A stretch of 64,000 nucleotides of DNA from Crossiella sp. CA-258035 (GTDB taxonomy: Bacteria; Actinomycetota; Actinomycetes; Mycobacteriales; Pseudonocardiaceae). Within the stretch, counting starts at the first letter, position 1. The number at the start of each line of letters is the position of its first letter. Both the position numbers and the translations under genes were made by a program. The DNA lies in contig NZ_CP116413.1 in NCBI RefSeq assembly GCF_030064675.1, positions 1,087,001-1,151,000 of the forward strand, in the 5' to 3' direction. Shown piece by piece: positions 27,593 to 56,866 of this stretch. The notes under the pieces were generated by a model. That model was not told the origin of the DNA and searched no databases. It worked only from the letters and a program-made list of their open reading frames with translations.

Positions 27593-28762
27593 ATGACCAC
27601 GCGGCACGCCAGCACCGTGAGCCCGGTCGAGCTGCTGTCGGACTACCGCGCCGGATCCTCGTTCTTCTTCTCCTCCCCCCGCGGCGTGCTGCTCGCCGAG
27701 GGAACCGCGGCCACCGTGCCCGGCGTCGCCGCCCCGGGCGAGCTGGGCGCGCTGCCCGCCCGGGTGGCCGCGGTGCTCGCCGAGGCCGGACCCGGCGCGC
27801 TGGTGGTGGGCGCGGTGCCCTTCGACCACAACGCGGCGGCCAGCCTGGTGGTGCCCGAGGGAGTGCGCCGGGCCGAGGCGTTCCCGGCCGAGCTCCGGCT
27901 GCCGGAACTGAGCATGAACGTGCCGGAGTGGGAGATCACCCCGGTGCCCGAACCAGCGGCGTACGTGCGCTCGGTGCGCGCCGCGCTCACCCCGCTGCGT
28001 TCGGGCGAGCTGGACAAGGTGGTGCTGGCCCGCTCGCTGGAGCTGACCGCGCCCACCACGGTGGACCTCGGCCCGCTGCTGAACAACCTGATCCGCCGGG
28101 ACCCGGCCGGCTACACCTTCGCCGCCGACCTGCCCGGCCGCACCCTCATCGGCGCCAGCCCCGAGCTGCTGCTCTCCCGCCGGGGCACCAGCGTGGTCTC
28201 CAACCCGCTGGCCGGTTCCGCCGCGCGCAGTGCCGACCCGGAGGAGGACCGGCGCCGAGCCGAGGCCTTGCTGGTCTCGGCCAAGGACCGGCACGAGCAC
28301 GCGGTGGTGGTGGACGCGGTGGCCGCCGCGCTGCGCCCGTACTGCCGGACCCTGGACGTGCCTGCCGCCCCGGAGCTGGTGCGCACCGCGACCATGTGGC
28401 ACCTGTCCACCAGGGTCACCGGCGAGCTGGCGGACGAGCGGACCTCCGCGCTGGAGCTGGCCGCGGCGCTGCACCCGACCCCCGCGGTGTGCGGCACGCC
28501 GGTCGGCGCGGCCAGGGACAAGATCCGTGCGCTGGAACCCTTCGACCGCGGCTTCTACACCGGCATGGTGGGCTGGTGCGACGGCAACGGCGACGGCGAC
28601 TGGGTGGTCACCATCCGCTGTGCCGAGGCCGATGACCACTCGCTGCGGCTCTTCGCCGGGGCGGGCATCGTCGCGGACTCCAGCCCGGAGGCCGAACTGG
28701 CCGAGACCGCGGCGAAGTTCCGCACGCTGCTGCTGGCCATGGGCATCGAGCAGATCGCCTGA
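27593..28762 (+). CDS. dhbC: Isochorismate synthase
   Basis: The 389-aa protein belongs to the EntC/DhbC/MenF chorismate-binding family. Visible are [13 protein letters not shown] (general-base Lys), [31 protein letters not shown] and [12 protein letters not shown], plus the terminal [18 protein letters not shown]. It converts chorismate to isochorismate for 2,3-dihydroxybenzoate or salicylate siderophores. The iron box upstream favours the siderophore role over menaquinone. GTGAGGA precedes the ATG. A DAHP synthase gene follows after 14 nt, so the operon both raises and diverts shikimate flux. No DHB-AMP ligase, isochorismatase or NRPS gene is in this window. Confidence 0.88.
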
Positions 28763-28776
28763 GCTGGAGGACCTGG

Positions 28777-29961
28777 GTGCACACCGAGGCGGTCCGCGAC
28801 GCGCTCGCGGACGAGGAACTGGCGTACTGGCAGCTGCTGCCCGCGCGGCAGCAACCCAGCTGGACCGACCCGGCCCTGGCCGCGGCGCACCGCGCCGAGC
28901 TGGCCGCCCGGCCGGGCCTGGTGCACTGGGCTGAGGTGGACGGGCTGCACCGCTGGCTGGCCGAGGTGGCCGGCGGCAGCGCCAAGGTGGTGCAGGCCGG
29001 CGACTGCGCGGAGGACCCGGCGGAGTGCACGCCGGAGCACATCGCGCGCAAGGTGGCCATGCTGGACGCGCTGGCCGGGGTGGTCGGCGGGGCCAGCGGG
29101 CTGCCGGTGGCGCGGGTGGGCCGGTTCGCCGGTCAGTTCGCCAAGCCCCGCTCCAAGCCCTCGGAACGCTGCGGCGACCTGGAGCTGCCGTCCTACCGCG
29201 GCCACCTGGTCAACGGCCCGGAAGCCGACCTGACCGCCCGGCGACCGGACTCGGCCCGGCTGGTGTCCTGTTACGAGGCGGCCAGCGTCGCGGTGGGCGC
29301 GCTGCGCGGCGCGCGCAGGCCGTTCGGGCAGCCGGTGTGGACCTCGCACGAGGCGCTGGTGCTGGACTACGAGCTCCCGTTGCTGCGCAAGAACTCCGCA
29401 GGCCAGACCTTCCTGGCCTCCACGCACTGGCCGTGGATCGGCGACCGGACCCGCCAGCCCGATGGCGCGCACGTGCGCCTGCTCGCCTCGGTGGCCAACC
29501 CGGTGGCCTGCAAGGTCGGCCCGACCACCCCGCGCGCGGACCTGCTCAAGCTGTGCGAGGTGCTGGACCCGCACCGCACCCCCGGCCGGCTGACCCTGAT
29601 CGCCCGCTTCGGCGTGCGCCGGGCCGCTGAGCTGGCCCCGCTGGTGGCCGCGGTGCGCGCGGCAGGCCACCCGGTGGTCTGGCTGAGCGATCCCATGCAC
29701 GGCAACACGATCAGCGCCGCGGGCGGGGTCAAGACCCGGCTGCTGGCCGACCTGATCGCCGAGGTCAGCCAGTTCCTGCGGATCGTGCCCGAACAGGGCG
29801 GCGTCGCCGGCGGCCTGCACCTGGAGGCCACCCCCGACCCGGTCACCGAATGCCTCGGCGCGGGCGTGGAGGCCGACGACCTCGCCCGCTGCTACACCTC
29901 CCTGTGCGACCCCCGCCTCAACCAGCAACAAGCCATCACCCTGGCCGCCGCCTGGCGCTGA
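28777..29961 (+). CDS. Class II DAHP synthase (secondary-metabolism type)
   Basis: This 394-aa enzyme matches class II 3-deoxy-D-arabino-heptulosonate 7-phosphate synthases, with VVQAGDCAE, RVGRFAGQFAKPRS, WTSHEALVLDYE, WIGDRTRQPDGAHV, CKVGPT, and LSDPMHGNT for metal and substrate binding. It lacks the long N-terminal extension of the housekeeping AroG of mycobacteria, as do versions embedded in phenazine or siderophore clusters, so feedback control by aromatic amino acids may be absent. The GTG at 28777 has GGAGGA upstream. It is the second gene of the iron-box operon and supplies the first shikimate-pathway step. Confidence 0.9.
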   Translation: MHTEAVRDALADEELAYWQLLPARQQPSWTDPALAAAHRAELAARPGLVHWAEVDGLHRWLAEVAGGSAKVVQAGDCAEDPAECTPEHIARKVAMLDALAGVVGGASGLPVARVGRFAGQFAKPRSKPSERCGDLELPSYRGHLVNGPEADLTARRPDSARLVSCYEAASVAVGALRGARRPFGQPVWTSHEALVLDYELPLLRKNSAGQTFLASTHWPWIGDRTRQPDGAHVRLLASVANPVACKVGPTTPRADLLKLCEVLDPHRTPGRLTLIARFGVRRAAELAPLVAAVRAAGHPVVWLSDPMHGNTISAAGGVKTRLLADLIAEVSQFLRIVPEQGGVAGGLHLEATPDPVTECLGAGVEADDLARCYTSLCDPRLNQQQAITLAAAWR

Positions 29962-35398: not shown

Positions 35399-36376
35399 TC
35401 AGCTCACCACGTCCGTGCGGGACCGGCGGACCAGCTCGGCCAGGTCGTTCATCACCTTGGTGAAGGACTGGTAGCTCATCGGCGCGGCCGCGAACCACGG
35501 CCCGACCTGGTCGGCCTGCACCGCGGGGTGCAGCTTCCAGGTGGCCACCTCGGCCATCTGGGCCGGCGTCAGCGCCTGGGCCTCCCGGTTGTCCACCAGC
35601 ACCAGGTCGGCCGGGTACTCCCGGACCTGCTCCCAGCTGATCTTCTGGAAGTACGCCTCGCCCTGGGCGGGCTCATAGACGTCCAGGCCCAGCGAGCGGA
35701 AGTACTTCAGGTCGCCGGACTCCTGCGGACGCACCAGGTACAGGTCGTTCTTGGTCGCGCTGACCACCAGCACCTTCAAGCCGGGCTTGCTCTTGGCCGC
35801 CTCGCGCAGGTTGTTCTCCGCCTTGGCGAACTCGGCCTTGGCCGTGGCCACCGCGCCGCCCTTGACGTCCGCGCCCAGCGCGCTGGCCAGGGTCTCGAAC
35901 CGGGCCAGCGCCTCGGGGATCGGCTTGCCGCCGATCTTGATCCCGGCGGTCGGCTTGACCTTGTCCTTGGCGGTGTCCGGGATGTACCAGAGCGTGTCGT
36001 CGTACATCGTGGTGATGGTCAGCTCCGGCCGCAGCGAGGCGAACTTCTCCAGGTTGAACTCGCCGTAGGTGGTGCCGACCGACTGGACCGCGCCGAGGTC
36101 CACGTTGCCGATCTGCGGGTCCGGTCGGCCGTCGGCGAGCTTCTGCGGGCCGAACACGCCGGTGACCTTGACGCCGAAGTCCCACAGCGTGCCCGCGGCC
36201 GCGGACTGGGCCACGATCCGGGTCGGCTTGGCGGGCAGGCTGATCTTCTCGCCGCGGTCGTCGGTGAACTCCCACGGGCCGCCGCCGGTGGGGCCGGTGG
36301 CGGAGCAGGCGGCGAGCAGTCCGGCGGTGGCCAGCACGGCCCCCGCGCGGAGCAGTCGGCGGGTGGATCCCAGCAT
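35399..36376 (-). CDS. Iron-siderophore ABC transporter substrate-binding lipoprotein
   Basis: The 325-aa lipoprotein has a lipobox (GLLAACSATG) and a FecB/FepB-like type III periplasmic-binding fold, with WEFTDDRGEKISLPAKPTRIVAQ, VGTTYGEFNLEKFASLRPELTIT and PADLVLVDNREAQALTPAQM. It should capture a ferric siderophore outside the membrane and deliver it to the two permeases encoded just upstream. AAAGGAAAG precedes ATG 36376, with 11 nt between it and the permease stop. It is the last gene of an iron-box operon. Confidence 0.9.
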   Translation of the reverse strand: MLGSTRRLLRAGAVLATAGLLAACSATGPTGGGPWEFTDDRGEKISLPAKPTRIVAQSAAAGTLWDFGVKVTGVFGPQKLADGRPDPQIGNVDLGAVQSVGTTYGEFNLEKFASLRPELTITTMYDDTLWYIPDTAKDKVKPTAGIKIGGKPIPEALARFETLASALGADVKGGAVATAKAEFAKAENNLREAAKSKPGLKVLVVSATKNDLYLVRPQESGDLKYFRSLGLDVYEPAQGEAYFQKISWEQVREYPADLVLVDNREAQALTPAQMAEVATWKLHPAVQADQVGPWFAAAPMSYQSFTKVMNDLAELVRRSRTDVVS

Positions 36377-36387
36377 GTTCTTTCCTT

Positions 36388-37401
36388 TCAGCCGGCGTTG
36401 GCTCGGTTGGCCCTGGCCAGCAACCACAACAGGAACGGCGCCCCGATCACGCCGGTCACCACGCCGACCGGGAGCTCGGCCGGTAGCAGGGTCCGCGCGA
36501 TCAGGTCGCTGACGAGCAGGAGCAGGGACCCGGCCAGCCCGGAGGCCAGCACGGGCGGGGTGGCCGACCGGCACAGCCGCAGCGCGAGCTGCGGGGAGAC
36601 CAGTGCGACGAAGACGATCGGCCCGGCCGCCGCGGTGGCGACCGCGGCCAGCCCGACCGCGACCAGGCCGAGGGACAGCCTGGCCCGCTGCACCGGGATG
36701 CCGAGTCCGGTGGCGGTGTCGTCGTTGAACTGCAAGGCATCCAGCCAGCCGCGCAGCAGCAGGGTGAGCGGCAGCAGCAGCACCACGGCCACCGCGATCC
36801 AGGTGACGTGGCCGAAGTTGCGGGCGTTGAGCGTGCCGGTGAGCCAGACCATCGCGCCCTGCGCGTCGTAGACACCCAGGCGCAGCAACAGATAACTGGT
36901 CGCGCCGGTGCACAGCGCCTGCACGCCGATGCCGACCAGCACGATCCGGTAGCCGGTGCTGCCTTGCTTCCAGGCGAGTGTGTACACGGCGAAGGCTGAG
37001 GCCAGCGAGCCGAGCAGGGCCAGCAGCGGCACGCCGAGCCCGCCGCCGACGCCGAGCGCGGTGCCCGCGACCACCACCACGTTCGCGCCGCCGGTGATGC
37101 CGATCAGGTCCGGGCTGGCCAGCGGGTTGCGGGTGAGGGACTGGAACAGCGCGCCCGCGACGCCGAAGGCCAAACCCACCAGCAGGCCGACCAGCGCGCG
37201 CGGCAGCCGGAGCTCCCGCACCACCAGCAGGGTGGAGTAGTCGCCGATGCCGCCGAGTGCGGCCACCACCTCGTCCAGGCCGAGCTGGAACTCGCCGGTG
37301 GCCAGACTGACGCAGAACATCAGCAGGGTCAGCGCGGCCAGCAGCACCGACACCGCGCTCACGCGGGCCCGGTTGCCGAGTTTCACAGGGGTAGTGGTCA
37401 C
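36388..37401 (-). CDS. FecCD-family iron-siderophore permease (second subunit)
   Basis: The 337-aa protein has about nine or ten hydrophobic segments and the FecCD signatures ALFQSLTRNPLASPDLIGITGGAN and AAGPIVFVALVSPQLALRL. It forms the membrane channel with the other permease. Its start follows the upstream permease stop by only 3 nt. An ATP-binding subunit is not encoded next to it. Confidence 0.92.
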   Translation of the reverse strand: MTTTPVKLGNRARVSAVSVLLAALTLLMFCVSLATGEFQLGLDEVVAALGGIGDYSTLLVVRELRLPRALVGLLVGLAFGVAGALFQSLTRNPLASPDLIGITGGANVVVVAGTALGVGGGLGVPLLALLGSLASAFAVYTLAWKQGSTGYRIVLVGIGVQALCTGATSYLLLRLGVYDAQGAMVWLTGTLNARNFGHVTWIAVAVVLLLPLTLLLRGWLDALQFNDDTATGLGIPVQRARLSLGLVAVGLAAVATAAAGPIVFVALVSPQLALRLCRSATPPVLASGLAGSLLLLVSDLIARTLLPAELPVGVVTGVIGAPFLLWLLARANRANAG

Positions 37402-37404
37402 CGA

Positions 37405-38451
37405 TCACAGCTCCGGGAGGCGCTGGCGGCGGACCAGCGCGATGAAGAAGGGCGCGCCGAGGAAGGCGACGATGATGCCGACCTGGAGCTCCTCCGGCCT
37501 GGCCAGCACCCGGCCGAGGATGTCCGCGCCCAGCAACAGGATCGGCGCGATCACCGCCGAGTAGACCAGCACCCAGCGGTGGTCGGGGCCGGTGATGATC
37601 CGGGCCATGTGCGGCACCACCAGGCCGATGAACACCATCGGCCCGCAGGCGGCCGCGGCCGATCCGGCGAGCAGGGTGATCGCGAGCACCGAGACCAGCC
37701 GGATTCGGCCGACGTTGCGGCCCAGCGCCCTGGCCACGTCCTCGCCGAGGGCCAGGCTGTTCAGCGCCGGGCTGACCGCGAGCGCGAGCACCGCGCCGAC
37801 GAGCAGGAACGGCAGCAGTTGGTAGAGCACCCTCGGGTCCTGGCCGTTGATCGCGCCGACCGCCCAGAACCGGTAGCGGTCCAGGGTGGCCGCGTCCAGC
37901 AGCAGCACCGCGGAGACCATCGAGTTGAGCATCGCCGAGACCGCGGCCCCGGCCAGCGCGAGCTTGGCCGGGCGGGCGCCGTCCCGGCCCAGGCTGCCCA
38001 GGCCGAAGACCACCACGGTGGCCACCAGCGCGCCCGCGAAGGCGAACCAGACGTAGCCGTAGAAGGAGGCGATCCCGCCGAAGAGCGCGGACAGCGTCAC
38101 GCCGAAGGCCGCGCCCGAGGTGACGCCGAGGATTCCCGGGTCCGCCAACGGGTTGCGGGTCACGCCCTGCATCAGCGCGCCGGCCAGGCCGAGCGCCGCG
38201 CCGACCGCGAGACCGAAGCCGGTGCGCGGCATCCGCAGCCCGCGCACGATCGCCTCGGCCTCCGGGCTCTCCGGCCGGAACACCGCGGTGAACACCTCGC
38301 CGAAGCCCAGGTCGGTGGTGCCCACCATGATGGACAGCACGCACACCAGCAGCAGCACACCGAGGGCGAGGAGCAACCCGAGTGGGCGCGACAGACCGGC
38401 CCCTGACGACCGCCCGGTCGCCACGGGCTGCCGCTTTTCGACCGTGGTCAC
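37405..38451 (-). CDS. FecCD-family iron-siderophore permease (first subunit)
   Basis: This 348-aa protein has the family motifs ALMQGVTRNPLADPGILGVTSGAAFG and ACGPMVFIGLVVPHMAR and about nine or ten transmembrane segments. I place the start at GTG 38451: TATCCT lies exactly 6 nt upstream with no ribosome site, and the longer frame to 38733 runs across the iron box and the opposite RNHCP gene. It is the first gene of the uptake operon and is the gene most directly controlled by the iron box. Confidence 0.9.
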   Translation of the reverse strand: MTTVEKRQPVATGRSSGAGLSRPLGLLLALGVLLLVCVLSIMVGTTDLGFGEVFTAVFRPESPEAEAIVRGLRMPRTGFGLAVGAALGLAGALMQGVTRNPLADPGILGVTSGAAFGVTLSALFGGIASFYGYVWFAFAGALVATVVVFGLGSLGRDGARPAKLALAGAAVSAMLNSMVSAVLLLDAATLDRYRFWAVGAINGQDPRVLYQLLPFLLVGAVLALAVSPALNSLALGEDVARALGRNVGRIRLVSVLAITLLAGSAAAACGPMVFIGLVVPHMARIITGPDHRWVLVYSAVIAPILLLGADILGRVLARPEELQVGIIVAFLGAPFFIALVRRQRLPEL

Positions 38452-38474: not shown

Positions 38475-38811
38475 CTACCGCGACGCGTCCGAAACCGGCG
38501 GCGAGGCCGCCCGGTTCACCCGGCGGATCGAGGACTTCACCTGCGGTCACTGCGAACGCACGGTCCGTGGCAACGGCTACACCAACCACTGCCCGCACTG
38601 CCTGTGGTCCCGGCACGTCGACATCAACCCCGGTGACCGGGCCGCGACCTGCGGCGGACTGATGCCGCCGGTGGCCGCCGGCATCCACAAGGACGCCTAC
38701 TTCGTGGTCCAGCGCTGCGAGAAGTGCGGCCATCAGCGGCGCAACAAGACCTCCCCGAGGGACAGCAGGGAGACGATCCTCACGTACTTCGGCCGACCCA
38801 TCCCGGGCTGA
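38467..38811 (+). CDS. RNHCP-domain zinc-binding protein
   Basis: The 114-aa protein carries the RNHCP-type motif YTNHCPHCLWSRHVD with further CxxC pairs (TCGHCERTV, QRCEKCGHQRRN), so it probably binds zinc and nucleic acid. The family is widespread in bacteria and has no established function. The ATG lies inside the iron box of the divergent uptake operon, so its expression may also depend on iron. Its last 32 nt overlap the convergent FUSC gene. Confidence 0.75.
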   Translation: MPNYRDASETGGEAARFTRRIEDFTCGHCERTVRGNGYTNHCPHCLWSRHVDINPGDRAATCGGLMPPVAAGIHKDAYFVVQRCEKCGHQRRNKTSPRDSRETILTYFGRPIPG

Positions 38812-40657
38812 GCGCGGCGGTCGCGCTGCGCAGGCTGACCACGTCCGCGGCCAGGCTGTCGATCAGCAGCCGCTGCTCCTCGGTGCGCGGCTCTGGCGGT
38901 TCCGCGACCTCGGTGCTGTCGCTGAGCGCGCGCACCAGCCAGTCCAGGGTGTCCCTGGTCAGCGCCACGTCCCCGCCGTGCATGAGCAGTCCCGCGGTGC
39001 CGCTGCGCAGCCCGCGCAGCGCGTCGTCGGCCTGGGCCAGCGCGGCCCGGTTGGCCTCGGTGTCGTCCCGGCCCTTGAGCTGGCCGCCGAGCAGCTCGTG
39101 CAGCTGCGCCGAGGACCGCCGCTGCTGCCGGACCAGCCCGGGCACGTCGACCTCCGCCCGGCTGCGGCCCAGCTGCCCGGCGATCGAGGTCAGCCCGGCC
39201 CGCGCGCCCTCGGTGGCCCGGCGCAGCCGCTCCAGCGGGGCCGGGGTGCGCATACCGGGCACCACCGCGAAGCCGAACAGCAGTCCGATGCCGACCGCGA
39301 GCAGGATCAGCAGCACGTACTCCACCAGCACCGGTACCGGGTCCAGGTGCCGGGTGGTGGCGTTCATGCCGACCAGCATCAGCACCATGCAGGCGTTGAA
39401 GACGATCGGATAGCGCTGCTGGAAGCCGAACCCGACCAGCATGGTGACCAGTCCCAGCGGCATCAGCACCGCCTGCGGCAGCAGCCACAGCACGGCGGCC
39501 AGCGCGAGCGCGCCGAGCAGCGTGCCTGCCGCGCGCTGCCAGGCCTTGAGCGCGCTGGCCCGCCAGTCCGGCTGCATGATCATGAACACCGCCATCAGGA
39601 AGGACGGCATCAGCGGGTCGCCCGGTCGCTGGGCGGCGATGACCAGCGCGAGCAGCACACCGAGTGCGCAGCGCAGCGCGTGCCGGAACTGCGCGGACTG
39701 CCAGGAGATCGCCTCGGCCAGCCGCGCGCCCGGGTACTCCGCGCCGAGCCGGGAGTTCGCCGGGGTCCGGTCCCGCCCGGCCAGCGCGGCCCGCACCCGG
39801 TCCAGCCCGTCCCACAGCGTGTCCACCATCGCTGAGGTCGCCCCCGGCAGTTCAGCGGGAGTCGCGGGCCGCTCCGGCGCGGGCGCGTCTCCGCCGTCGA
39901 CCACCACCGCGGCCAGCGCGGCGGCCTCGGCCTTGGCCGCCTCCAGCACCGCGCGCAGCTCAGCCGCCACCGGCTCGGGCAGCTGCTCGGCCCGGTCGGT
40001 GAGCAGGAACAGCTTGGTGCGGTAGCGCAGCCCGCCGTCGAGCACCTGACCCAGCCAGGTGCGCTGCCGGTCGCCGCGCCAGGCCCGGATCGCCGCGTCC
40101 GGCCCGCGCGGCCCGGCCTCGGTGAGCACCCCGGCCACCGCGGTCCTGGTCGGCTTGTCCGGATCCCGCAGCCCGGCCAGCAACCGCAACAGGATCACCA
40201 CGCCCGAGCCCAGCGCGGGCGCGGCCACCACCTGCCAGAGGCTCGCGGTGCCGGTGGTCTGGAAGGCGTAGCCGAACAGCGCGCCCATGCCCAGCCCGAG
40301 CCCGACGGTGATGAACCGGGGCCCGAACGTGGGCAGCAGCGACACCGCGAACACGACCACGGTGAGCACCGCGATGGCCGCCACCACCGACACCTCGGCC
40401 AGCAGCCGCGGCCCGGCCACCACCAGCACCATCGCCGGGGCGAACACCGCGAGCAGCTTCAGATCCGGCCACAGCGCGCCGCCGAAGGCCGCGATCAGGC
40501 AGAACATCGCCGACAGCGCGCCGAGCACCGCGGCTGGCCCGAGCCCGGCCAGGAAGCCGAGCCCGGCCACCCCGCCGATGACCACGACCATCATCACCGG
40601 CAGCATCACGGGCGAAGGGCCGGACCGGGGTGCGCTGGTACTCACCCGGCCGATCAT
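38780..40657 (-). CDS. FUSC-family membrane protein
   Basis: The 625-aa protein has two hydrophobic blocks of about five or six segments each (about residues 15-165 and 335-455) and cytoplasmic helical regions after each, as in FUSC/aromatic-acid-exporter (AaeB/YccS-like) proteins. These are thought to export aromatic or toxic compounds. It lies 13 nt after the EccC-like gene on the same strand, so it is probably the third gene of that operon, which is an unusual partner for a type VII secretion ATPase. Confidence 0.8.
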   Translation of the reverse strand: MIGRVSTSAPRSGPSPVMLPVMMVVVIGGVAGLGFLAGLGPAAVLGALSAMFCLIAAFGGALWPDLKLLAVFAPAMVLVVAGPRLLAEVSVVAAIAVLTVVVFAVSLLPTFGPRFITVGLGLGMGALFGYAFQTTGTASLWQVVAAPALGSGVVILLRLLAGLRDPDKPTRTAVAGVLTEAGPRGPDAAIRAWRGDRQRTWLGQVLDGGLRYRTKLFLLTDRAEQLPEPVAAELRAVLEAAKAEAAALAAVVVDGGDAPAPERPATPAELPGATSAMVDTLWDGLDRVRAALAGRDRTPANSRLGAEYPGARLAEAISWQSAQFRHALRCALGVLLALVIAAQRPGDPLMPSFLMAVFMIMQPDWRASALKAWQRAAGTLLGALALAAVLWLLPQAVLMPLGLVTMLVGFGFQQRYPIVFNACMVLMLVGMNATTRHLDPVPVLVEYVLLILLAVGIGLLFGFAVVPGMRTPAPLERLRRATEGARAGLTSIAGQLGRSRAEVDVPGLVRQQRRSSAQLHELLGGQLKGRDDTEANRAALAQADDALRGLRSGTAGLLMHGGDVALTRDTLDWLVRALSDSTEVAEPPEPRTEEQRLLIDSLAADVVSLRSATAALSPGWVGRST

Positions 40658-40670
40658 GCCCCACCAGCGG

Positions 40671-42953
40671 CTACTCGACCGGCACCCAGCCCACCTGCAC
40701 CAGCTGCGTCGTCTGGTGGTCCCGCCACAGCTGCGCGCGCCCCGGCGGCGAGGCGTACGGCAGCAGCCCGGTGATCACGTCCGGGGTGTCCGGGTTGCCG
40801 TTGAGCAGCAGGGTCAGCGTGTCGTTGAAGTCCAGCGCGGACAGCAGCGGGTCGGTGCGGCGCAGGTAGCTGCCGGCCAGCACCAGGTGGAAGCCGATCC
40901 GCCGGGCGTCCGGCAGCAGGTCGGCCAGCACCTCCAGCACCCCGGCCTGCTGGGTGATCTCGTAGTCGTCGATCACCAGGTACACCTCGGGGCCGTTGCC
41001 CCTGCCCTCGTCCCGCCGCTTGACCAGGGACTCCCGGATCTCGTCGATCGGCACCGACATCTTGCTGGTCTGGGTCAGGTAGGTGAGCAGCCACTCGTTG
41101 GGCACCGAACCGAGCCAGTTGCGCTTGGGGTCGATCCCCGCCACCAGGGCCTGCTCCGGGGTGGTCGCGGCGGTGAGGTTGTGCAGCAGCGCGCGCAGCA
41201 CCGCGGTCCGCCCGCTGCCGTAGTCGCCGAAGCACAGCAGGTGCTGCTTCAGGCCGAGCCCGAAGCCGTTCAGCTCGCCCTCGATCACGCCCAGCGGCCA
41301 GCGCTCGTTCTTGGGCACCTCGGTCAGCGGCACCTCGGCGGGCAGCGGCAGCAGCTGCTTGGGTCGCGCGCCGGTCCAGGCCGCGTTGATGGCCGTCACC
41401 GGGTCCGGCTGGTCCTGGAACCGCGGCAGCGCGGCCAGGAAGTGCTCGCCCTGGTAGGTCAGCCCGTGCCCGATGCCCGGCAGCTCCTTGGCCTTGACCG
41501 GGTCCACCGCGGAGAAGTGCGGCGCGGACAGCCCCAGCTCCAGCCTGCTGCTGAACGCATCGGCCAGCGGCTGCTCCAGCTCGCTCCAGCGGTTGATGCC
41601 CAGCAGCACGTGCACGTTCACCCCCGGCCCTCGGTTGATGAGGTCGTACACCGCGTCGTAGGCGTGCGGGTAGCGGCGCAGGCCGTACCAGCCGTGCACC
41701 AGCACCACCACCGCGCCGGGCTCGGCCGCCCCGGTCCCGTCCCGCCTGGCCCGTTCCCGCCGGTCGATCAGCGCGTTGAGCTCGTTGGCCGCGTGCCAGA
41801 TGAGCGCGTAGTCCTGGTAGGCGGCGGCCACCCTGGTGTGCGGCAGGCCGCGCAGCGGCAGCAGCGACTCGCCCGCGAAGTCCAGCACGTACAGCTGGAG
41901 GTGCGCCGGCGTGTTGGCCAGGGCCAGGCTGAGCGCGGCGTTGTGCAGCACCTCGGCCACCCCGGCCGCCGGATCACCGACCACCAGCGCGTGACCGTCT
42001 CCTGTGGACAGTTCCAGCCGGTGCTGCTCCCGCCTTCGCTCCGCGGGCCGGTCCACCAGGCCGACGATGGGGGAGAGCCTCGGCTCGCCGGGGATGTGCA
42101 GGCCGAGCTGATCGTCGGTGGCCGTCGGCGGCAGCAGCACGTCCAGGCTCATCCGCTCGCGCAGCGGCGGCAGCAGCAGCGGTTCCGGGATGGCGGCCGT
42201 GCCGGTGAGCCCGGCCAGCGCCTCGGCCACCTGCGCGGCGGGCAGCGGCTGGCAGGTGACCGGGTCCTGGCCGGTGGCCCAGAGCACCAGGTCGCTGTCC
42301 CTGGTGTTGAGCTCGAAGCCGAAGTGCTTGGGCAGCCCCGAAGGCAGGTCGGTGACCTGGTCCAGCACCGCGACCAGGTGCACGCCCTGGTCCCGCCAAC
42401 CGGCCGCCTCGTCCCTGATCACCTCGACCAGTCCGGGCGCCAGCCGCTCCAGCCTGCTGAACCGGTTGAGCACCACGACCAGCGAGGTCATCGGGTCCAG
42501 CTCCGGGTCGTAGTGCCGGGCCCGCTCGTAGTCGTGCTGGGTGCGCATCTTGCGCTGCCGCAACAGCTCCGCCCGCCGAAGGCTCTCCGCGCGCAGCGCC
42601 TGCACCACGTGCCGGGCCGCGTCCGCGCCGGTGAGCAGGTGCGCCAGCTGCGGCGCCCGCTCGAACTCCTCGAACACCGCGCCGTGGCCCGCGTCCAGCA
42701 GGAACAGGTTCAACGTGTCCGGCGAGTGCGCCGTCACCAGGCCCAGCAACAGTTGGCGCACCGCGGCGTCCCGGTTGGCCTCACCGAAGCCGGTGACCAG
42801 CCCGTGCGCGCCGATCCCGCCCAGCGACGGCGGTTTCAGGTCCACCTCGACCGGCTGACCGTCCACAGTGGACCCAACCGCGACCCGCAGCCGCTGCCCG
42901 ACCGGCCGCACCGGCCAGCCCGCCTCCGTCACATCTCCCCCTACACCGTCCAT
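40671..42953 (-). CDS. Soluble EccC-like protein A, all three ATPase sites degenerate
   Basis: This 760-aa protein lacks the N-terminal membrane helices of EccC but aligns by motif with its three FtsK/SpoIIIE-type domains. D1 (about 20-240) has GGIGAHGLVTG followed by GFGEANRDA instead of a GSGKS loop. D2 (about 275-475) has VVGDPAAGVAE but keeps LYVLDF. D3 (about 545-760) has CFGDYGSGRTAVLR, where R582 replaces the P-loop Lys, and VYLVIDDYE. The tail PPGRAQL resembles the EccC D3 end. ATG 42953 is chosen to match the paralogue; GTG 42983 is possible. It overlaps the upstream paralogue by 13 nt. Confidence 0.72.
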   Translation of the reverse strand: MDGVGGDVTEAGWPVRPVGQRLRVAVGSTVDGQPVEVDLKPPSLGGIGAHGLVTGFGEANRDAAVRQLLLGLVTAHSPDTLNLFLLDAGHGAVFEEFERAPQLAHLLTGADAARHVVQALRAESLRRAELLRQRKMRTQHDYERARHYDPELDPMTSLVVVLNRFSRLERLAPGLVEVIRDEAAGWRDQGVHLVAVLDQVTDLPSGLPKHFGFELNTRDSDLVLWATGQDPVTCQPLPAAQVAEALAGLTGTAAIPEPLLLPPLRERMSLDVLLPPTATDDQLGLHIPGEPRLSPIVGLVDRPAERRREQHRLELSTGDGHALVVGDPAAGVAEVLHNAALSLALANTPAHLQLYVLDFAGESLLPLRGLPHTRVAAAYQDYALIWHAANELNALIDRRERARRDGTGAAEPGAVVVLVHGWYGLRRYPHAYDAVYDLINRGPGVNVHVLLGINRWSELEQPLADAFSSRLELGLSAPHFSAVDPVKAKELPGIGHGLTYQGEHFLAALPRFQDQPDPVTAINAAWTGARPKQLLPLPAEVPLTEVPKNERWPLGVIEGELNGFGLGLKQHLLCFGDYGSGRTAVLRALLHNLTAATTPEQALVAGIDPKRNWLGSVPNEWLLTYLTQTSKMSVPIDEIRESLVKRRDEGRGNGPEVYLVIDDYEITQQAGVLEVLADLLPDARRIGFHLVLAGSYLRRTDPLLSALDFNDTLTLLLNGNPDTPDVITGLLPYASPPGRAQLWRDHQTTQLVQVGWVPVE

Positions 42954-45184
42954 GTCAGCTGCACCGTCTCCTCCGCCGTCCACCGCCGCGTGATCGCCCG
43001 CCCCGGCGGCAGCACCCTGGGCCGCACCCCGCTCACCGGGGTGACGTGCCGGTCGGCCCCGCTGAGCGAGAGCACGGTGGTGTCCTTGGGATCAAGCCCG
43101 CGCAGCACCGGATCCGTCTTCGCCGGGTACCGGCCAGCCGCGATCAGGTGGAACCCGGTCTTGGCCGCATCGGCCACCAGCGGCGCCAGCTGGTCCCGTT
43201 GCGCGGCCGCGAGGTAGTCGTAGTCGTCGATCACCAGGTACAGGTCCGGCCCGCGCCACTGCCCCTCGTGGTTCCGGCGCGGGGCCAGCGCGGTGCCGAT
43301 GTCCCGGACCGCCTCGTCGAACTGCGTGGCGGTGCGCACGTAGGAGATCAGCAAGCCCTCGCAGTCAGCGTTGAACCAGGTCCGCCCGTAGTCCACGCCG
43401 ACCACCCTGGCCTCCTCCGGCGTGCGCAGCGCGACCAGCCCGCGGATGAAGGACCTGATCAGCGTGCTCTTGCCGCTTTCCGGGTCGCCGAAGCACACCA
43501 GGTGCCGGTGCTGGAAGGTGAACGGCAGGCCGGAGCCCTCGGTCAGGCCGAGCTTGAAGTCCCGGTCGCCGCCGCCGATGTCGGCGAAGTTCACCTTGTA
43601 CGGCAACGCTTTCAGCCGCTGCACCGGGTGCGGCCAGGCCGCCGCGAGGTCCGGGGCCAGGTCCCGGGCCCGGTGCCGGGGACCGGCCAGCATGAACAGC
43701 GTGCCGTCGCCGGTCCGGCCGCGCATCGAGCCCAGCTCCGGCGGCCTGCCCGGCAGCGGGGAGCTGTCCGGATCGGCCAGTGCCAGTTCCAGCCGGTGCC
43801 GGAAAGCGCCGTGCAGCGCGGGTTCCACATCCGCCCACCGGTCCAGGCCGAGCAGCACGTGCACGCCGACGGCCTGCCCGCGCAGCACCAGCTGCCGCAG
43901 CACCGCGGCCAGCCCCGGATGCAGCTCGGCGTCGGGCCAGCCGTGCACCAGCACGAAGATCGCGGCAGGCTCCCCGGCCTCGGCGCGATCGGTGCGGTCC
44001 GGCAGCCGGTGGTAGAGCTGCTCGCGGTGCTTGACCAGCCCGGCCAGCTCGTCCCTGGTCTTGTCCCGCAGGCTGTCGTCCGCGCCGCTGACCGCCACCC
44101 GCACGTGTGGCAGGCCGCCGGCCAGCTCGGGCAGCGAGCTGCCGTTGAGGTCGAGCAGGTAGAGCCGCGCCCGCTCCGGCGTCCGGTGCAGCGCGATGGA
44201 CAGCGCGAAGCCGCTCAGCGCCCAGGCCAGCCCGGTGCCGACCAGCAGCACCTGCCCCTGTTCCACCATGACCCGGAACGGCTCGCCCCGCTCCGCGCCC
44301 AGCAGCTCGCCGACCGGCAGCGCGCTCGTCTCGCGCACCGCCCGCAACCCGTGCTCCTCGGTCTGCCGGAGCTCGACCAGGTTGGTGAAGTCGATCGTCT
44401 CGCGTGGCAGGAACGAACCCTCGGTCACCTTGGGCATGGTGGCCACCAGCGCCTGCACGTCCGGCGCGGCCTGCGGGGTGAACGCGACCGGCTCCCGCCC
44501 GGGCACCCGCAGCTCGGCGGCGTGGTCGGAAACGGCCAGCTCGAAGCCGAAGTAGCCGTCCAGCGCCGCGGGCACATCGGCGAGCCGGTCCTCCACCAGC
44601 AGCAGGTGCACGCCGTGGTCCCGCCAGGCCGCGCAGTGCCCGCGCAGCAGCTCGGTCAGCTCCGGCGACTCCCGGTGCAGCAGGCTGAGCCGGTGCAGCA
44701 CCAGCACCAGCGGCACGATCGGCGGCAGCTCCGGCTGGTAGTGCCGGGCCCGGTCGTAGTCGTGCAGGGTGCGCATGCCGTGCGTGCGCAACAGCCGCCT
44801 GCGCTGCGCCGAGGTCGCGGCCAGGGCCTCGACCAACAGCGCGAGGCTCTGCGGCTCGCGCACCGCGTGCTGGGCCCGCTGGTAGTCCCGGAAGAGCTCC
44901 GCCCGCTCGCCGTCGACCAGGCAGAGCTGCACGGTCTCCGGCGCGTGCGTGTCCAGCAGCCCGCACAGCACCGCGTGCAGCAGCTCGGTCCTGGCTCCGG
45001 CCGCGATGCCGGTCAGCAGGCCGTGCGCGCCGATCCCGCCCAGCGGCGGTGGTTTCAGGTCCACCTCGACCGGCTGACAGTCCACAGTGGACCCCACCGT
45101 CACCCGCAACCGCTGTGCCGCCGGTCGCGCCTGCCACTCCCTCAACCCGCGCCCCCCGTGCTCGCCGATCTTCGCCGCCCCCAT
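42941..45184 (-). CDS. Soluble EccC-like protein B, only D3 keeps a P-loop
   Basis: The 747-aa paralogue of protein A has the same layout without membrane helices. D1 reads GGIGAHGLLTGIAAGARTE and D2 reads LLVGTGLAWALSG, both without Walker A. D3 has an intact CFGDPESGKSTLIRSF (K572) and Walker B YLVIDDYD (D653, D654), then PPGRAIT near the end. In classical EccC the first domain is the active one; here the pattern is reversed. ATG 45184 is chosen because it gives an N terminus like protein A; ATG 45307 would add 41 unlike residues. It is the first gene of the operon with protein A and FUSC. Confidence 0.72.
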   Translation of the reverse strand: MGAAKIGEHGGRGLREWQARPAAQRLRVTVGSTVDCQPVEVDLKPPPLGGIGAHGLLTGIAAGARTELLHAVLCGLLDTHAPETVQLCLVDGERAELFRDYQRAQHAVREPQSLALLVEALAATSAQRRRLLRTHGMRTLHDYDRARHYQPELPPIVPLVLVLHRLSLLHRESPELTELLRGHCAAWRDHGVHLLLVEDRLADVPAALDGYFGFELAVSDHAAELRVPGREPVAFTPQAAPDVQALVATMPKVTEGSFLPRETIDFTNLVELRQTEEHGLRAVRETSALPVGELLGAERGEPFRVMVEQGQVLLVGTGLAWALSGFALSIALHRTPERARLYLLDLNGSSLPELAGGLPHVRVAVSGADDSLRDKTRDELAGLVKHREQLYHRLPDRTDRAEAGEPAAIFVLVHGWPDAELHPGLAAVLRQLVLRGQAVGVHVLLGLDRWADVEPALHGAFRHRLELALADPDSSPLPGRPPELGSMRGRTGDGTLFMLAGPRHRARDLAPDLAAAWPHPVQRLKALPYKVNFADIGGGDRDFKLGLTEGSGLPFTFQHRHLVCFGDPESGKSTLIRSFIRGLVALRTPEEARVVGVDYGRTWFNADCEGLLISYVRTATQFDEAVRDIGTALAPRRNHEGQWRGPDLYLVIDDYDYLAAAQRDQLAPLVADAAKTGFHLIAAGRYPAKTDPVLRGLDPKDTTVLSLSGADRHVTPVSGVRPRVLPPGRAITRRWTAEETVQLTWTV

Positions 45185-45339
45185 CTTCGCGCACCGCCCT
45201 GGCCGAAGGACTGCCCCCGCTTGGCGGAGCCGGTATCGGTCGCTCTGCGGATGGTGCAGAACCGGCCACAGCGTCAGACTGTCACCAGCATCCCCCGTAT
45301 CCGCCATTCAGGGGCTGGTCACAGGTTCGAACGTGTGAA

Positions 45340-46401
45340 ATGGCGGAGGCCCCCTTGTTGTCGCAGCTCGACACCCGCATCGACGTCGACTGGGTCCGCG
45401 TGGCCCTGAGCAGGGGCTGGGGTGCGGAGTGGGCCCGCCGCCCGCTCAACCCGCGCACCGACTGGCTGGGCCGTCCGACCGGCGACTCCTGGTTGGTGCA
45501 CGCCAGCGCCCAGCCGCACGTGTTCACCATCCGGCTCGACCCGGCCGAGCGCGCGCCAGCCGCGCTGTTCCCGGTGCGGCAGAAGGTGCTGGCGCACTGC
45601 CGGCGGCAGGGCGTGCCCGCGCCCAACCCGGTGCGGACCACCGACGGCGGCACCGTGACCTGGCGCGGGGACCTGGCCTGCGAGCTGACCCCGGCGCTCA
45701 AGGGCGCGGTGCCGCACCACTTCGGCCCGAACCAGATCGCCGCCGTGGTGCGCGCCGGCCTGCTGCTGCGCGCCAGCCTGGACCAGGTGCCCGCGCCGGT
45801 GGTCAGCGCGCTGGCCGCGGTCGCCGTCCCGCCGCCGCCCTGCTGGCGCGCCGCGGTCGAGGCGGCCAGGAGCGACCTGCTGCCGCTGGCCGAGCGCCGC
45901 ACCGACGACTGGGGCCGGGCCTGCGCGGCGATGCTGCGCGGCGTGCTGGCCGCCGAACCGCTGATGGACGCGCTGCGGCCGCGCACGGCGCGCGCGGTGG
46001 TGCACGGCAGCCTGTGCGGCAAGCAGTTCGTGCTCTCCGGCGGCCGGGACCCGCAGGTGCTCGGCGTGCTGGACTTCGGCGCGCTGCACGTGGGCGACCC
46101 GCTGCTGGACCTGGCCGCGCTGGCCGACACCGCGGCCAGGGTCCGGGTCGGCGAGACCGCCCAGCGCCGCGCCCTGGCCTCGTTCCAGGACCTGGCGGCC
46201 CGCGGCTACCTGCTCGCCGACGGCCAGGAACAGCTGCTGATGCCGTTGCTGCTGACCAGAACCGTGCCGCCGCTGGTCGAGCTGGTCCGCGCGGTCCTGC
46301 TGGTCGGCCGCCGGGGACCAGGTGTGATCGAGCGGTTCGACCGCTACGACCCGATGCACAAGGCGAACGTGCACCGCCTGCTCACCGGACCGGCCTGGTG
46401 A
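45340..46401 (+). CDS. Aminoglycoside phosphotransferase-fold protein, probable pseudokinase
   Basis: This 353-aa protein has the C-terminal lobe of APH/choline-kinase-like enzymes: the catalytic-loop equivalent VVHGSLCGKQFVLSG and VLGVLDFGALHVGDPLLDLAAL. In active members the loop reads HGDLHxxN. Here the catalytic Asp is Ser224 and the metal-binding Asn is Gln229, while the DFG-like Asp245 and GDP..DLA remain. Phosphotransfer is therefore doubtful. It diverges from the EccC-like operon with about 150 nt between starts and may be a partner or sensor for that system. The start at ATG 45340 has no clear ribosome site. Confidence 0.7.
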   Translation: MAEAPLLSQLDTRIDVDWVRVALSRGWGAEWARRPLNPRTDWLGRPTGDSWLVHASAQPHVFTIRLDPAERAPAALFPVRQKVLAHCRRQGVPAPNPVRTTDGGTVTWRGDLACELTPALKGAVPHHFGPNQIAAVVRAGLLLRASLDQVPAPVVSALAAVAVPPPPCWRAAVEAARSDLLPLAERRTDDWGRACAAMLRGVLAAEPLMDALRPRTARAVVHGSLCGKQFVLSGGRDPQVLGVLDFGALHVGDPLLDLAALADTAARVRVGETAQRRALASFQDLAARGYLLADGQEQLLMPLLLTRTVPPLVELVRAVLLVGRRGPGVIERFDRYDPMHKANVHRLLTGPAW

Positions 46402-54270: not shown

Positions 54271-54762
54271 ATGCGCACCAACACTGTTGTCGACAGCCCG
54301 TACGGCCCGCTGACCCTGGTCGCCCAGGACGGCGCGCTGGCCGGGATCTACATGGAACAGCAGCGCCACCTCCCGCCGAGGGAGAGCTTCGGCGAACCGG
54401 ACCCCTCGGCGTTCGGCCAGGCGATCGAGCAGCTCAACGCCTACTTCGCCGGCGAGCTGCGCCGCTTCGACCTGCCGATGACGTTGCTGGGCACACAGTT
54501 CCAGCGTTCGGTGTGGCGGCTGCTGCTGGAGATCCCCTACGGCGAGACCGCCACCTACGGCGAGCTCGCGCAACGGCTGGGCAACCCCGCCGCGGCCCGC
54601 GCGGTCGGCCTGGCCAACGGCAAGAACCCGATCAGCATCATCGTGCCCTGCCACCGGGTGATCGGGTCCACCGGCAACCTCACCGGATATGGGGGAGGAC
54701 TGGCGAAGAAGCGGCAGCTGCTGGACTTCGAGCGAGGTCGAGATCAGCTGTCAGTGTGGTGA
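54271..54762 (+). CDS. ogt: Methylated-DNA-protein-cysteine methyltransferase
   Basis: The 163-aa O6-alkylguanine transferase has the acceptor motif IIVPCHRVIG with Cys127 and the winged-helix segment TATYGELAQRLGNPAAARAVG. It transfers the methyl group from O6-methylguanine to itself. It forms an adaptive-response operon with the Ada-AlkA gene. Its last 83 nt overlap the convergent EspG-like gene, a large overlap for two protein-coding genes. Confidence 0.95.
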   Translation: MRTNTVVDSPYGPLTLVAQDGALAGIYMEQQRHLPPRESFGEPDPSAFGQAIEQLNAYFAGELRRFDLPMTLLGTQFQRSVWRLLLEIPYGETATYGELAQRLGNPAAARAVGLANGKNPISIIVPCHRVIGSTGNLTGYGGGLAKKRQLLDFERGRDQLSVW

Positions 54763-55492
54763 GCTGGCCGTGCAGCCGCCTGCCGTCGGCCGGGCTGACC
54801 GTGGTCCACGCGGTGCCGTCGCTGGCCCGGTGCTCCTCCACCAGGTAGCGCCCGTAGGCGGTGTCGTGGAAGGCCACCACCCGCTCGGCCCGGCGCCGCC
54901 GCCCGGTGGCATCCAGCGCGGCCGCGCCGAACTGTCCGTAGTCCACCGGCTCCCGGAACATCAGCGCCAGCGCCGCGGCCTGCGCGGCGGGCACCCCGTG
55001 CTCGCCGAGCGCCGCCTCGAACGCCTCCAGGTCCCCGGTGGCCGCGGCCGCGCTGAGCGTCGCGGAGCGCACCGACACGCTCTCGCCCGGCCCCGGTGGC
55101 CGCTCGGGCAGCGGCGAGAGGATCGCGTGCGTCAGCCCGGTCGGCTCCAGCACGGTGACCTGCCAGCGGTCCCCGGCCAGCACCACCAGCGCGGCCTGCT
55201 CACCCGCGGCGGCGGCCAGCGCGCGCACCGGCTGCTCCAGGAACAGCCGCGCGTCCAGCTCCCGCTCCGGCCGGGCCAGCATCCGCAGCAGCGCCACCAG
55301 TTCCGGGTGCACCCCGCCGCGCAGCACCAGTCCGGCCGCGGACAGCTCGGCGTCCACGGCCAGTGCCTGTTCGGCCCGCTCGGCCTCGGTGTGCGCCTGC
55401 GCCGGGACCCGGACCACCAGTGGCTGCGGCCCCAGTTCCAGCCGCTGCCACAACAGGTCCACCGCGGCGGCGGAGAGCGTGAACGCGGTCAC
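54680..55492 (-). CDS. EspG-like type VII secretion chaperone
   Basis: This 270-aa protein opens with TLSAAAVDLLWQRLELG and continues with the long alternating helices and strands of the ESX secretion-associated EspG family (LDARLFLEQPVRALAA, AALVVLAGDRWQVTVL, and a late GRYLVEEHRASDGTAWTTVSP). EspG proteins bind PPE substrates in the cytoplasm and keep them soluble. Its GTG start overlaps the stop of the PPE-like gene (GTGA). It ends inside the ogt gene. Confidence 0.82.
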   Translation of the reverse strand: MTAFTLSAAAVDLLWQRLELGPQPLVVRVPAQAHTEAERAEQALAVDAELSAAGLVLRGGVHPELVALLRMLARPERELDARLFLEQPVRALAAAAGEQAALVVLAGDRWQVTVLEPTGLTHAILSPLPERPPGPGESVSVRSATLSAAAATGDLEAFEAALGEHGVPAAQAAALALMFREPVDYGQFGAAALDATGRRRRAERVVAFHDTAYGRYLVEEHRASDGTAWTTVSPADGRRLHGQLTTLTADLDLARSPAAAASSPVLPHIR

Positions 55493-56505
55493 GGCACGGG
55501 GGACTGGCCGATGACCGCGGGCGTCTCCTCCTCGGTCTCCAGCGGGGGCCGCGGCACCGGGTGGTAGCCCAGCACCCCGTTGCGCAGGCCGAGCCCGCCC
55601 TGCTCCTGATCCGTCTCCGAGCGCTTGCGGTCCACAGTGGACTTCTCAGTCCTCGGCTCCGGCACCGACCGCACCACCATGCTCGGTCGCGGCGGATTGT
55701 GCTGCTGCGTACGGTGATCGTCGGCCGGGTTGCCGTCTCCGGTCACCGACCACACCTGGGTGCGGTCCACAGTGGACGATCGCGGCACCGGGTGTTCCTG
55801 AGGCACCAGCGGCACCGGCGCGGGATCCGGCAGCGCCGGGTGCGCCACGGGCGCGTGCGGCGGCTGCGGGGCCGGCTGGGCGGCCCGGCTCACCGTGACC
55901 GAGGCGTTGAGCCCCAACGGGTTCTTCAGCGACAGCCCGGACAGCAGCGAGCCGGGTGCGACGATCTCGATGTCCAGCCGGGGCGGGTTCACCAGCGGCG
56001 GCAGCGTGGCCAGCGCGGTGTCCACCCGCTCCTCGTAGACCTCCATCGCCCGCGCCGCCTCCGCGTGCGCCGAATCGACCTGCACCTCCACCGGCTCGTA
56101 GTCGATCCGGTTGTCCACCAGCGCGGGCAGCCAGGCCACCGCGGTCACCGGCTTGGTCGGGAAGAACCGCGGCGGCGGCACCTGGTTGCGCGCGTCGGCG
56201 TAGGCGTCGGCGCACTCCTGGGTGGCGCCGGCCTCGGTGTCCATCGCGACCTTGGTCTCCGCGGCCCAGCCGGCCAGCGGGGTCAGCGCCTCGGCGGTGC
56301 CGGTGGCGGCCGCACCCTGCCAGCCGGTGCGCAGCTTGGCCAGCCGGTTGTGCAGGTTCTCATCGACCCGGTGCAGCGCCTCGGCGAGCTGCCGGTAGGT
56401 GGTCACCGCGGGCTCGGTCACGCCGACGCCGGGTCCACAGTGGAGGTCCAGGTAGATCTTGAGGTGCGGGACGGCCAGCCAGCAGCGTCCATGGGCGCCT
56501 CGCAT
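55489..56505 (-). CDS. PPE-like type VII secretion substrate
   Basis: The 338-aa protein has a helical N-terminal part (about 30-200: TYRQLAEALHRVDENLHNRLAKLRTGWQGAAATGTAEALTPLAGW), then a Pro-rich region, and it ends in ETPAVIGQSPVP, echoing the PPVIG tail of the PPE-like protein at 10.9 kb. ATG 56505 is chosen because GGGAAGG lies 7 nt upstream. It sits between a small helical gene and an EspG-like gene, the classic PE-PPE-EspG order, which supports the assignment despite weak sequence identity. It contains three copies or near copies of the 13-bp STVD-type repeat. Confidence 0.75.
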   Translation of the reverse strand: MRGAHGRCWLAVPHLKIYLDLHCGPGVGVTEPAVTTYRQLAEALHRVDENLHNRLAKLRTGWQGAAATGTAEALTPLAGWAAETKVAMDTEAGATQECADAYADARNQVPPPRFFPTKPVTAVAWLPALVDNRIDYEPVEVQVDSAHAEAARAMEVYEERVDTALATLPPLVNPPRLDIEIVAPGSLLSGLSLKNPLGLNASVTVSRAAQPAPQPPHAPVAHPALPDPAPVPLVPQEHPVPRSSTVDRTQVWSVTGDGNPADDHRTQQHNPPRPSMVVRSVPEPRTEKSTVDRKRSETDQEQGGLGLRNGVLGYHPVPRPPLETEEETPAVIGQSPVP

Positions 56506-56521
56506 GCCGGTCCTTCCCTTC

Positions 56522-56866
56522 TCAGACCCGAAAACCAGTGGTCGCACTCTGCTCGGCGGCGCGGTACTCGGCCGCGGCCGCGTCCAGCTGCTCGACCGCG
56601 TGGAACAGCTCGGCCAGGTACACCGTCAGCACGGCCAGCGCGGAGTCCTCGGACTGCACCCCGCGCCGGGTCTGCTCCCCGGCCGCCGCCCTGCTCACCT
56701 CGTCCGAGGCCGCGGGCCAGCTGATCAGGTTGTGCTGGGCCTGCCGCAACAGCGGGGCCAGTTCGTTGATCGCCTCGACGAAGGCGGCCCTGGTGGCCTC
56801 GATCTCCTCGGCGTCCACGAGCAGCCTGCCAGGCGCGTGCTGAACCGGGGCGGCGGTAGTGAACAC
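56522..56866 (-). CDS. Small helical PE-like protein
   Basis: The 114-aa protein is almost entirely helical (about residues 15-50 and 65-105) and carries no signal peptide, as expected for the small partner of a PPE-like substrate. GTG 56866 lies exactly 6 nt after TAGCGT (56878-56873), which makes this a leaderless first gene. The PPE-like gene begins 17 nt downstream. Sequence alone would not identify it; gene order does. Confidence 0.65.
   Translation of the reverse strand: MFTTAAPVQHAPGRLLVDAEEIEATRAAFVEAINELAPLLRQAQHNLISWPAASDEVSRAAAGEQTRRGVQSEDSALAVLTVYLAELFHAVEQLDAAAAEYRAAEQSATTGFRV

What the first reader, a model, noticed from the sequence alone, without database searches (positions are those of the whole stretch)
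38780..46401. Orphan soluble EccC-like pair with reversed ATPase competence, FUSC partner and divergent pseudokinase
Seen: two adjacent paralogues (about 750 aa) carry all three EccC-type domains without membrane helices. D1 and D2 have lost Walker A in both. D3 has GDPESGKS in protein B but GDYGSGRT in protein A. In known EccC proteins the first domain is the one needed for secretion, so this is the opposite pattern. The operon continues into a FUSC transporter and faces an APH-fold protein lacking its catalytic Asp. No EccB, EccD, EccE or mycosin is nearby. Inference: this may be a type VII-derived apparatus with a new job, such as a heteromeric regulatory ATPase or a defence or export complex.
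Basis: partly seen in the sequence, partly recalled or inferred. Interest (0 to 1): 0.75.

Follow-up and report, generated by a model that had tools for sequence, protein, structure and literature searches.

The report
Soluble, catalytically dead EccC-like protein pair
A small genus of actinobacteria carries a pair of soluble relatives of the type VII secretion motor that have lost the sites expected to burn ATP and sit in an operon with a membrane transporter gene; what they do is untested.

Summary
A (window 40671-42953) and B (42941-45184) are soluble D1-D2-D3 EccC homologues in an operon with a FUSC membrane protein, divergent from an APH-fold pseudokinase. The genus is Crossiella. All four genes occur in 4 of 5 held genus genomes; the fifth has one A orthologue plus FUSC and APH. 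No A/B orthologue was recognised among 385 other family genomes, in order and class samples, or by a two-motif scan of 84,980 species. D1 and D2 have lost Walker A and B in 9 of 9 proteins. D3 keeps the EccC ATPase3 site, which published work describes as ATP-binding with little or no hydrolysis. So 'reversed ATPase competence' fails: no competent site remains, and the A/B Arg/Lys difference is not conserved. FUSC is common elsewhere without the pair. Most likely a nucleotide-binding, non-hydrolysing scaffold derived from EccC, acting at FUSC or on the cell's ESX systems; the partner is undecided.

The parts
42941..45184 (-). Protein B: soluble EccC-like D1-D2-D3; probable start TTG 45145
40671..42953 (-). 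Protein A: soluble EccC-like D1-D2-D3; probable start GTG 42932, 8 nt after the stop of B
38780..40657 (-). FUSC_2 membrane protein, 625 aa, two hydrophobic blocks (12-163 and 324-471); starts 13 nt after the stop of A
45340..46401 (+). APH-fold protein, 353 aa, catalytic Asp replaced by Ser; divergent from B
45273..45315 (.). 43-bp intergenic element, 36 of 43 bases invariant in 5 of 5 genus genomes; possible shared divergent promoter or operator
54680..56866 (-). EspG, PPE-family protein and a 114-aa PE-like protein (the PE label is my guess, no Pfam match): nearby type VII substrate/chaperone cassette, link to the pair unproven

Best explanation
A and B are paralogous EccC cytoplasmic regions (D1-D2-D3) that lack the membrane and DUF part and both Walker motifs of D1 and D2, while D3 keeps the ATPase3 site. 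I propose that they form a cytosolic homo- or hetero-oligomeric scaffold that binds ATP in D3 without hydrolysing it, ATP acting as a structural or sensing ligand and D1/D2 as protein-binding surfaces. Encoded in one operon with the FUSC membrane protein, they most likely dock on FUSC and gate, assemble or localise it, with the divergent APH-fold pseudokinase as a co-regulated ligand or partner binder. Shown here: homology, motif loss and retention, tight gene spacing, conserved intergenic element, restriction to the genus in what was searched. Inferred: co-transcription, ATP binding, absence of hydrolysis, oligomerisation, docking on FUSC, the role of the pseudokinase.
For: Walker A and B of D1 and D2 lost in 9 of 9 proteins; D3 GxxxxG[KR][ST], DD and PPG kept in 9 of 9, Dx[RK] in 7 of 9. 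In 38 canonical EccC rows D1 is intact in 38 of 38. In the model of A, the helix after the D1 Walker A strand starts at residue 58, three residues before the usual Lys position, while in D3 it starts at 582, at the Lys/Arg; PMC11154593 reports an extended helix where those glycines are lost (passages). Gaps B/A 8 nt and A/FUSC 13 nt; G002 keeps its single A orthologue 7 nt from FUSC with APH divergent. Element between B and APH conserved. D1 is the most conserved domain between A and B (49% against 37%) and among orthologues (79% A, 72% B against G001) although its site is dead, which fits a binding surface.
Against: FUSC relatives occur in 121 of 390 family genomes, and 12 such loci outside the genus show no A/B-like neighbour, so FUSC does not need the pair. 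The region around the block is syntenic over tens of kb in the genus, so linkage within the genus is not independent evidence. No complex could be modelled. The EspG/PPE cassette nearby fits the ESX rival better.
Confidence: 0.4

Rival explanations
1. The pair works with the cell's own four canonical ESX systems: D1-D3 bind WXG100/PPE-type substrates or canonical EccC and act as adaptor, store or brake for secretion.
For: EccC ancestry; D3 is the domain that binds EsxB C-termini in known EccC (PMC6954902, passages); four intact EccB/EccC loci in the same genome; an EspG/PPE cassette 8.3 kb away, in the same order near the block in G001, G003 and G002.
Against: No WXG100 or core gene beside the pair; 11 EspG matches in the genome give about a 2% chance of one so near by simple count, and the region is syntenic anyway; other ESX-bearing genera lack the pair; the D3 pocket is described as hypervariable (PMC6954902), so I could not test it.
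Confidence: 0.3
2. A component of a defence or conflict system in which EccC-like domains are sensors or effectors.
For: A, B and APH change faster than flanking transporter genes; a caspase-EccC fusion exists in another family genome, G248; active and inactive FtsK-type ATPases and aminoglycoside-kinase-like domains are listed as effectors of conflict systems (PMC8195603 and PMC7159879, passages).
Against: PADLOC matches of A and B are to FtsK-like parts only (mad8, SspH) and FUSC and APH match nothing (no canonical EccC was run as control); the G248 protein groups with canonical EccC, not with A/B; no effector-type domain was found on A, B, FUSC or APH.
Confidence: 0.12
3. Relaxed, decaying duplicates with no remaining function.
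For: dN/dS is higher than for the neighbours, and about 1.0 for A against G002, where the simple method is limited by GC bias; B is absent from G002.
Against: All nine genes are open over 716-760 codons as called; dN/dS 0.28-0.41 between the closest pair; D3 motifs kept in 9 of 9; the intergenic element is conserved.
Confidence: 0.1

Closest known systems
EccC, actinobacterial type VII secretion ATPase (T. curvata 4nh0; M. tuberculosis EccC5)
   Same: D1-D2-D3 order, fold (Foldseek E 7.7e-65) and the D3 nucleotide site
   Different: No membrane segment, D1 and D2 sites dead, no ESX core genes beside it
EccCb1, soluble half of the split ESX-1 EccC
   Same: Soluble; best matched by the EccCb model
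   Different: EccCb1 holds D2-D3 only and pairs with membrane EccCa1 (PMC6954902, passages); A and B hold D1-D2-D3 and no EccCa is beside them
EccC DUF domain, a degenerate ATPase-like domain
   Same: Lost Walker A glycines and Lys, with an early helix, as in D1 of A (PMC11154593, passages)
   Different: It is part of a membrane-bound EccC
Soluble EccC-like proteins of G247 (729 aa) and G248 (1,378 aa, caspase fusion)
   Same: EccC D1-D2-D3 without an N-terminal membrane segment
   Different: Walker A of D1 and D2 intact; no FUSC or APH homologue seen in the 20-kb loci; G248 groups with canonical EccC
FUSC/ArAE transporters and APH-type kinases
   Same: Pfam matches; APH fold of the model
   Different: This APH has Ser for the catalytic Asp and Gln for the following Asn; FUSC sits in an EccC-like operon here

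Membership tests
EccC (type VII secretion ATPase) | Three FtsK/SpoIIIE-type domains D1-D2-D3 in order | tested here: met
EccC (type VII secretion ATPase) | N-terminal membrane helices and DUF domain | tested here: not met
   Proteins start at D1; no N-terminal hydrophobic segment, present in two resident EccCs
EccC (type VII secretion ATPase) | Catalytically complete D1 (Walker A and hhhhDE) | tested here: not met
   Lost in 9 of 9; intact in 38 of 38 canonical rows
EccC (type VII secretion ATPase) | ATPase3-type nucleotide site in D3 | tested here: met
   Walker A [KR] form, DD and PPG in 9 of 9, Dx[RK] in 7 of 9
EccC (type VII secretion ATPase) | Encoded with EccB/EccD/MycP/WXG100 | tested here: not met
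   EccB and WXG100 not in the window; subtilase under the mycosin cut-off; EccD model absent from 20 neighbours
EccC (type VII secretion ATPase) | Drives secretion of WXG100/PPE-type substrates | not testable with these tools
   -
EccCb (NCBIfam TIGR03925) | Score at or above 346.55 bits | tested here: not met
   344.0 (A) and 227.8 (B) bits
FUSC transporter family | FUSC_2 domain over Pfam's cut-off and two membrane blocks | tested here: met
   41.5 bits against 25.6; hydropathy; transport itself not testable
APH kinase | APH fold | tested here: met
APH kinase | Catalytic Asp of the HGD motif | tested here: not met
   HGS in 5 of 5 orthologues (motif meaning recalled)
Known anti-phage defence system (PADLOC) | System-specific components | tested here: not met
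   FtsK-like matches only for A and B; none for FUSC and APH

The most novel reading that the evidence does not exclude
A type VII motor was stripped of its membrane part and its ATPase activity, duplicated, and rebuilt as an ATP-sensing ring that controls a FUSC exporter, with a pseudokinase as co-sensor: a secretion motor turned into a transporter regulator.
Probability: 0.2. Interest if true: 0.65.

Novelty: new variant of a known kind. Interest (0 to 1): 0.42.

Why it matters
If true, the EccC scaffold can leave secretion and live on as a non-hydrolysing binding module, and the pair is a natural test of what ATP binding in D3 does when D1 cannot fire. The narrow host range and the unknown partner limit its reach.

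Tried and rejected
Rejected: D3 as a new active ATPase. Its Walker B is hhhDD, as in the 38 canonical rows, and the A/B Arg/Lys contrast is not conserved. Against this stands that all 38 canonical rows sampled have Lys in D3, so Arg is unusual here although the published ATPase3 motif allows it.

Rejected: A and B as recent copies of a resident EccC. In the tree A, B and the G002 protein form one clade apart from the 38 canonical rows (support 100), with G002 on the A side (100), so the A/B duplication seems older than the genus split and G002 probably lost B. The first two trees held wrongly framed rows, because loci on the minus strand had not been turned; only one search is used.

Rejected: FUSC bound to A/B everywhere; the block inside an ESX locus.

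Led nowhere: B against plasmids gave 56 records, all under 60% identity; 3 of the 5 listed are annotated eccCa. The 43-bp element has no second copy within 3 mismatches. PADLOC.

Papers: none in the held library has both 'Crossiella' and 'type VII secretion'. 'EccC-like' occurs in one paper, on S. aureus, seen as a listing. The 12 listed of 212 papers for pseudo-ATPase/EccC/type VII terms have no occurrence of 'pseudo-ATPase'. FUSC/FtsK/APH terms gave 18 papers, 10 listed, seen as listings. Caspase/EccC terms: listings. PMC11217815 has no occurrence of 'soluble' or 'orphan' (passages). This does not show that the pair is absent from print. PMC7159879, PMC8195603, PMC11154593, PMC6954902 and PMC11217815 were read as passages only.

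Not tested: EccE; complexes; expression; true start codons; a structure model of B; frames of 854-972 aa in G192, G193 and G197.

Full report
What is there. The window lies in a complete 9.17 Mb genome. A motif scan returned two named loci, Crossiella sp. SN42 and S99.2, whose contig lengths equal those of G004 and G003, which share the window's genus. I therefore take the genus as Crossiella, Pseudonocardiaceae. B (42941-45184), A (40671-42953) and FUSC (38780-40657) run on the minus strand. A's probable GTG start lies 8 nt after the stop of B, and FUSC starts 13 nt after the stop of A. The APH-fold gene (45340-46401) diverges from B.

The pair. Both proteins match EccC D1-D2-D3. A model of A from 15 sequences has mean pLDDT 87.4 and pTM 0.71 and finds T. 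curvata EccC first (4nh0, E 7.7e-65, TM-score 0.67). Neither protein has an N-terminal membrane segment, while two resident EccCs measured the same way do.

Nucleotide sites. In nine proteins (four A, four B, one single from G002) Walker A of D1 is lost, and its Walker B Asp-Glu reads Asn or His plus Arg or Lys. D2 has lost the Walker A Lys, and its Walker B Asp is His, in 9 of 9. D3 keeps GxxxxG[KR][ST], DD and PPG in 9 of 9 and Dx[RK] in 7 of 9. In 38 canonical EccC rows D1 Walker A and B are intact, and D3 has Lys and DD, in 38 of 38. Published work gives ATPase3 as GXXXXG[K/R][T/S] with hhhhDD and finds intact ATP there, in a state called unfavourable for hydrolysis (PMC6954902, passages). 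D1 is reported active and D2/D3 poor or undetectable (PMC11154593, passages).

Distribution. All 5 held genus genomes have the block. Four have B and A; G002 has one 735-aa protein, 48% identical to A, with FUSC and APH. Of 390 family genomes searched with A at E<=1e-60, 116 match, five of them these. The best of the other 111 is E 7.7e-83 against 1.3e-191 for G002; most of the listed matches cover only D2-D3 on frames over 1,300 aa, as canonical EccC does. Exceptions are a soluble 729-aa protein (G247), a 1,378-aa fusion (G248), and frames of 854, 855 and 972 aa (G193, G192, G197) not examined further. B at E<=1e-45 finds, besides this genome, one long-frame EccC in 397 order genomes and none in 394 class genomes; these samples overlap. 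The 84,980-species scan used two short motifs and returned two Crossiella loci; it can miss divergent relatives. FUSC relatives at E<=1e-30 occur in 121 of 390 family genomes, and the 12 loci outside the genus that I opened show no A/B-like neighbour. APH relatives at E<=1e-15 occur in 6 of 390.

Selection. Against G004, dN/dS is 0.28 (A), 0.41 (B), 0.19 (FUSC), 0.46 (APH), 0.07 and 0.14 (two flanking transporter genes). Against G002 A reaches about 1.0, where a simple method is limited by GC bias. The genes look constrained but fast-changing.

Regulation. Between B and APH, 36 of 43 bases (45273-45315) are invariant in 5 of 5 genomes, against 31 of 88 in 45185-45272 and 3 of 24 in 45316-45339. 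The element is single-copy in the genome at up to 3 mismatches. I read it as a shared divergent promoter or operator.

Pseudokinase. HGD is HGS and the later Asn is Gln in 5 of 5, with the DFG Asp kept. A paralogue elsewhere, aligned from two of the four genomes where it scores 46-49% identity, has HGA and no DFG Asp; the more distant G002 and G373 relatives keep HAD. The model has an APH fold (mean pLDDT 86.8, best hit E 2.8e-9).

Neighbourhood. An EspG/PPE/114-aa cassette lies at 54680-56866. It has the same order in G001, G003 and G002, at 8.6, 15.5 and 12.8 kb from the APH gene; in G004 block and cassette each lie near a contig start, so distance is unknown. EspG matches number 11-17 per genome, so one this near by chance has a probability of about 2% by simple count, and the region is syntenic. 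This is weak evidence for an ESX link.

Judgement. Motif loss, solubility by sequence, isolation from ESX core genes and restriction to the genus in what was searched are shown. ATP binding, oligomerisation and the FUSC partnership are inferred, and the ESX-linked rival is close behind.

Noticed in passing
   Followed up: partly
L074:10085-14221: A 1,378-aa protein of another Pseudonocardiaceae genome (G248) joins a caspase domain, an extra P-loop stretch and EccC D1-D2-D3 with intact sites.
   Followed up: partly
L073:9632-11821: A soluble 729-aa D1-D2-D3 protein (G247) with intact Walker A in D1 and D2, outside any recognised ESX locus in the 20 kb seen.
   Followed up: partly
L079:7744-11455: In the window's genome, a 931-aa FtsK-type ATPase beside two small (83 and 86 aa) proteins without Pfam matches.
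   Followed up: no
L136:9570-11560: A second APH-fold pseudokinase in Crossiella (HGA, DFG Asp lost) next to a 317-aa protein with weak helix-turn-helix matches.
   Followed up: no
L129 and L130: In another genus, the FUSC gene lies near genes that look like ftsZ and divIVA (labels recalled from their sequence, no call).
   Followed up: no
window 27593-29961 and 35399-38451: Isochorismate synthase (DhbC model), a class II DAHP synthase match and FecCD-type iron-siderophore uptake genes lie on the FUSC side of the block.
   Followed up: no
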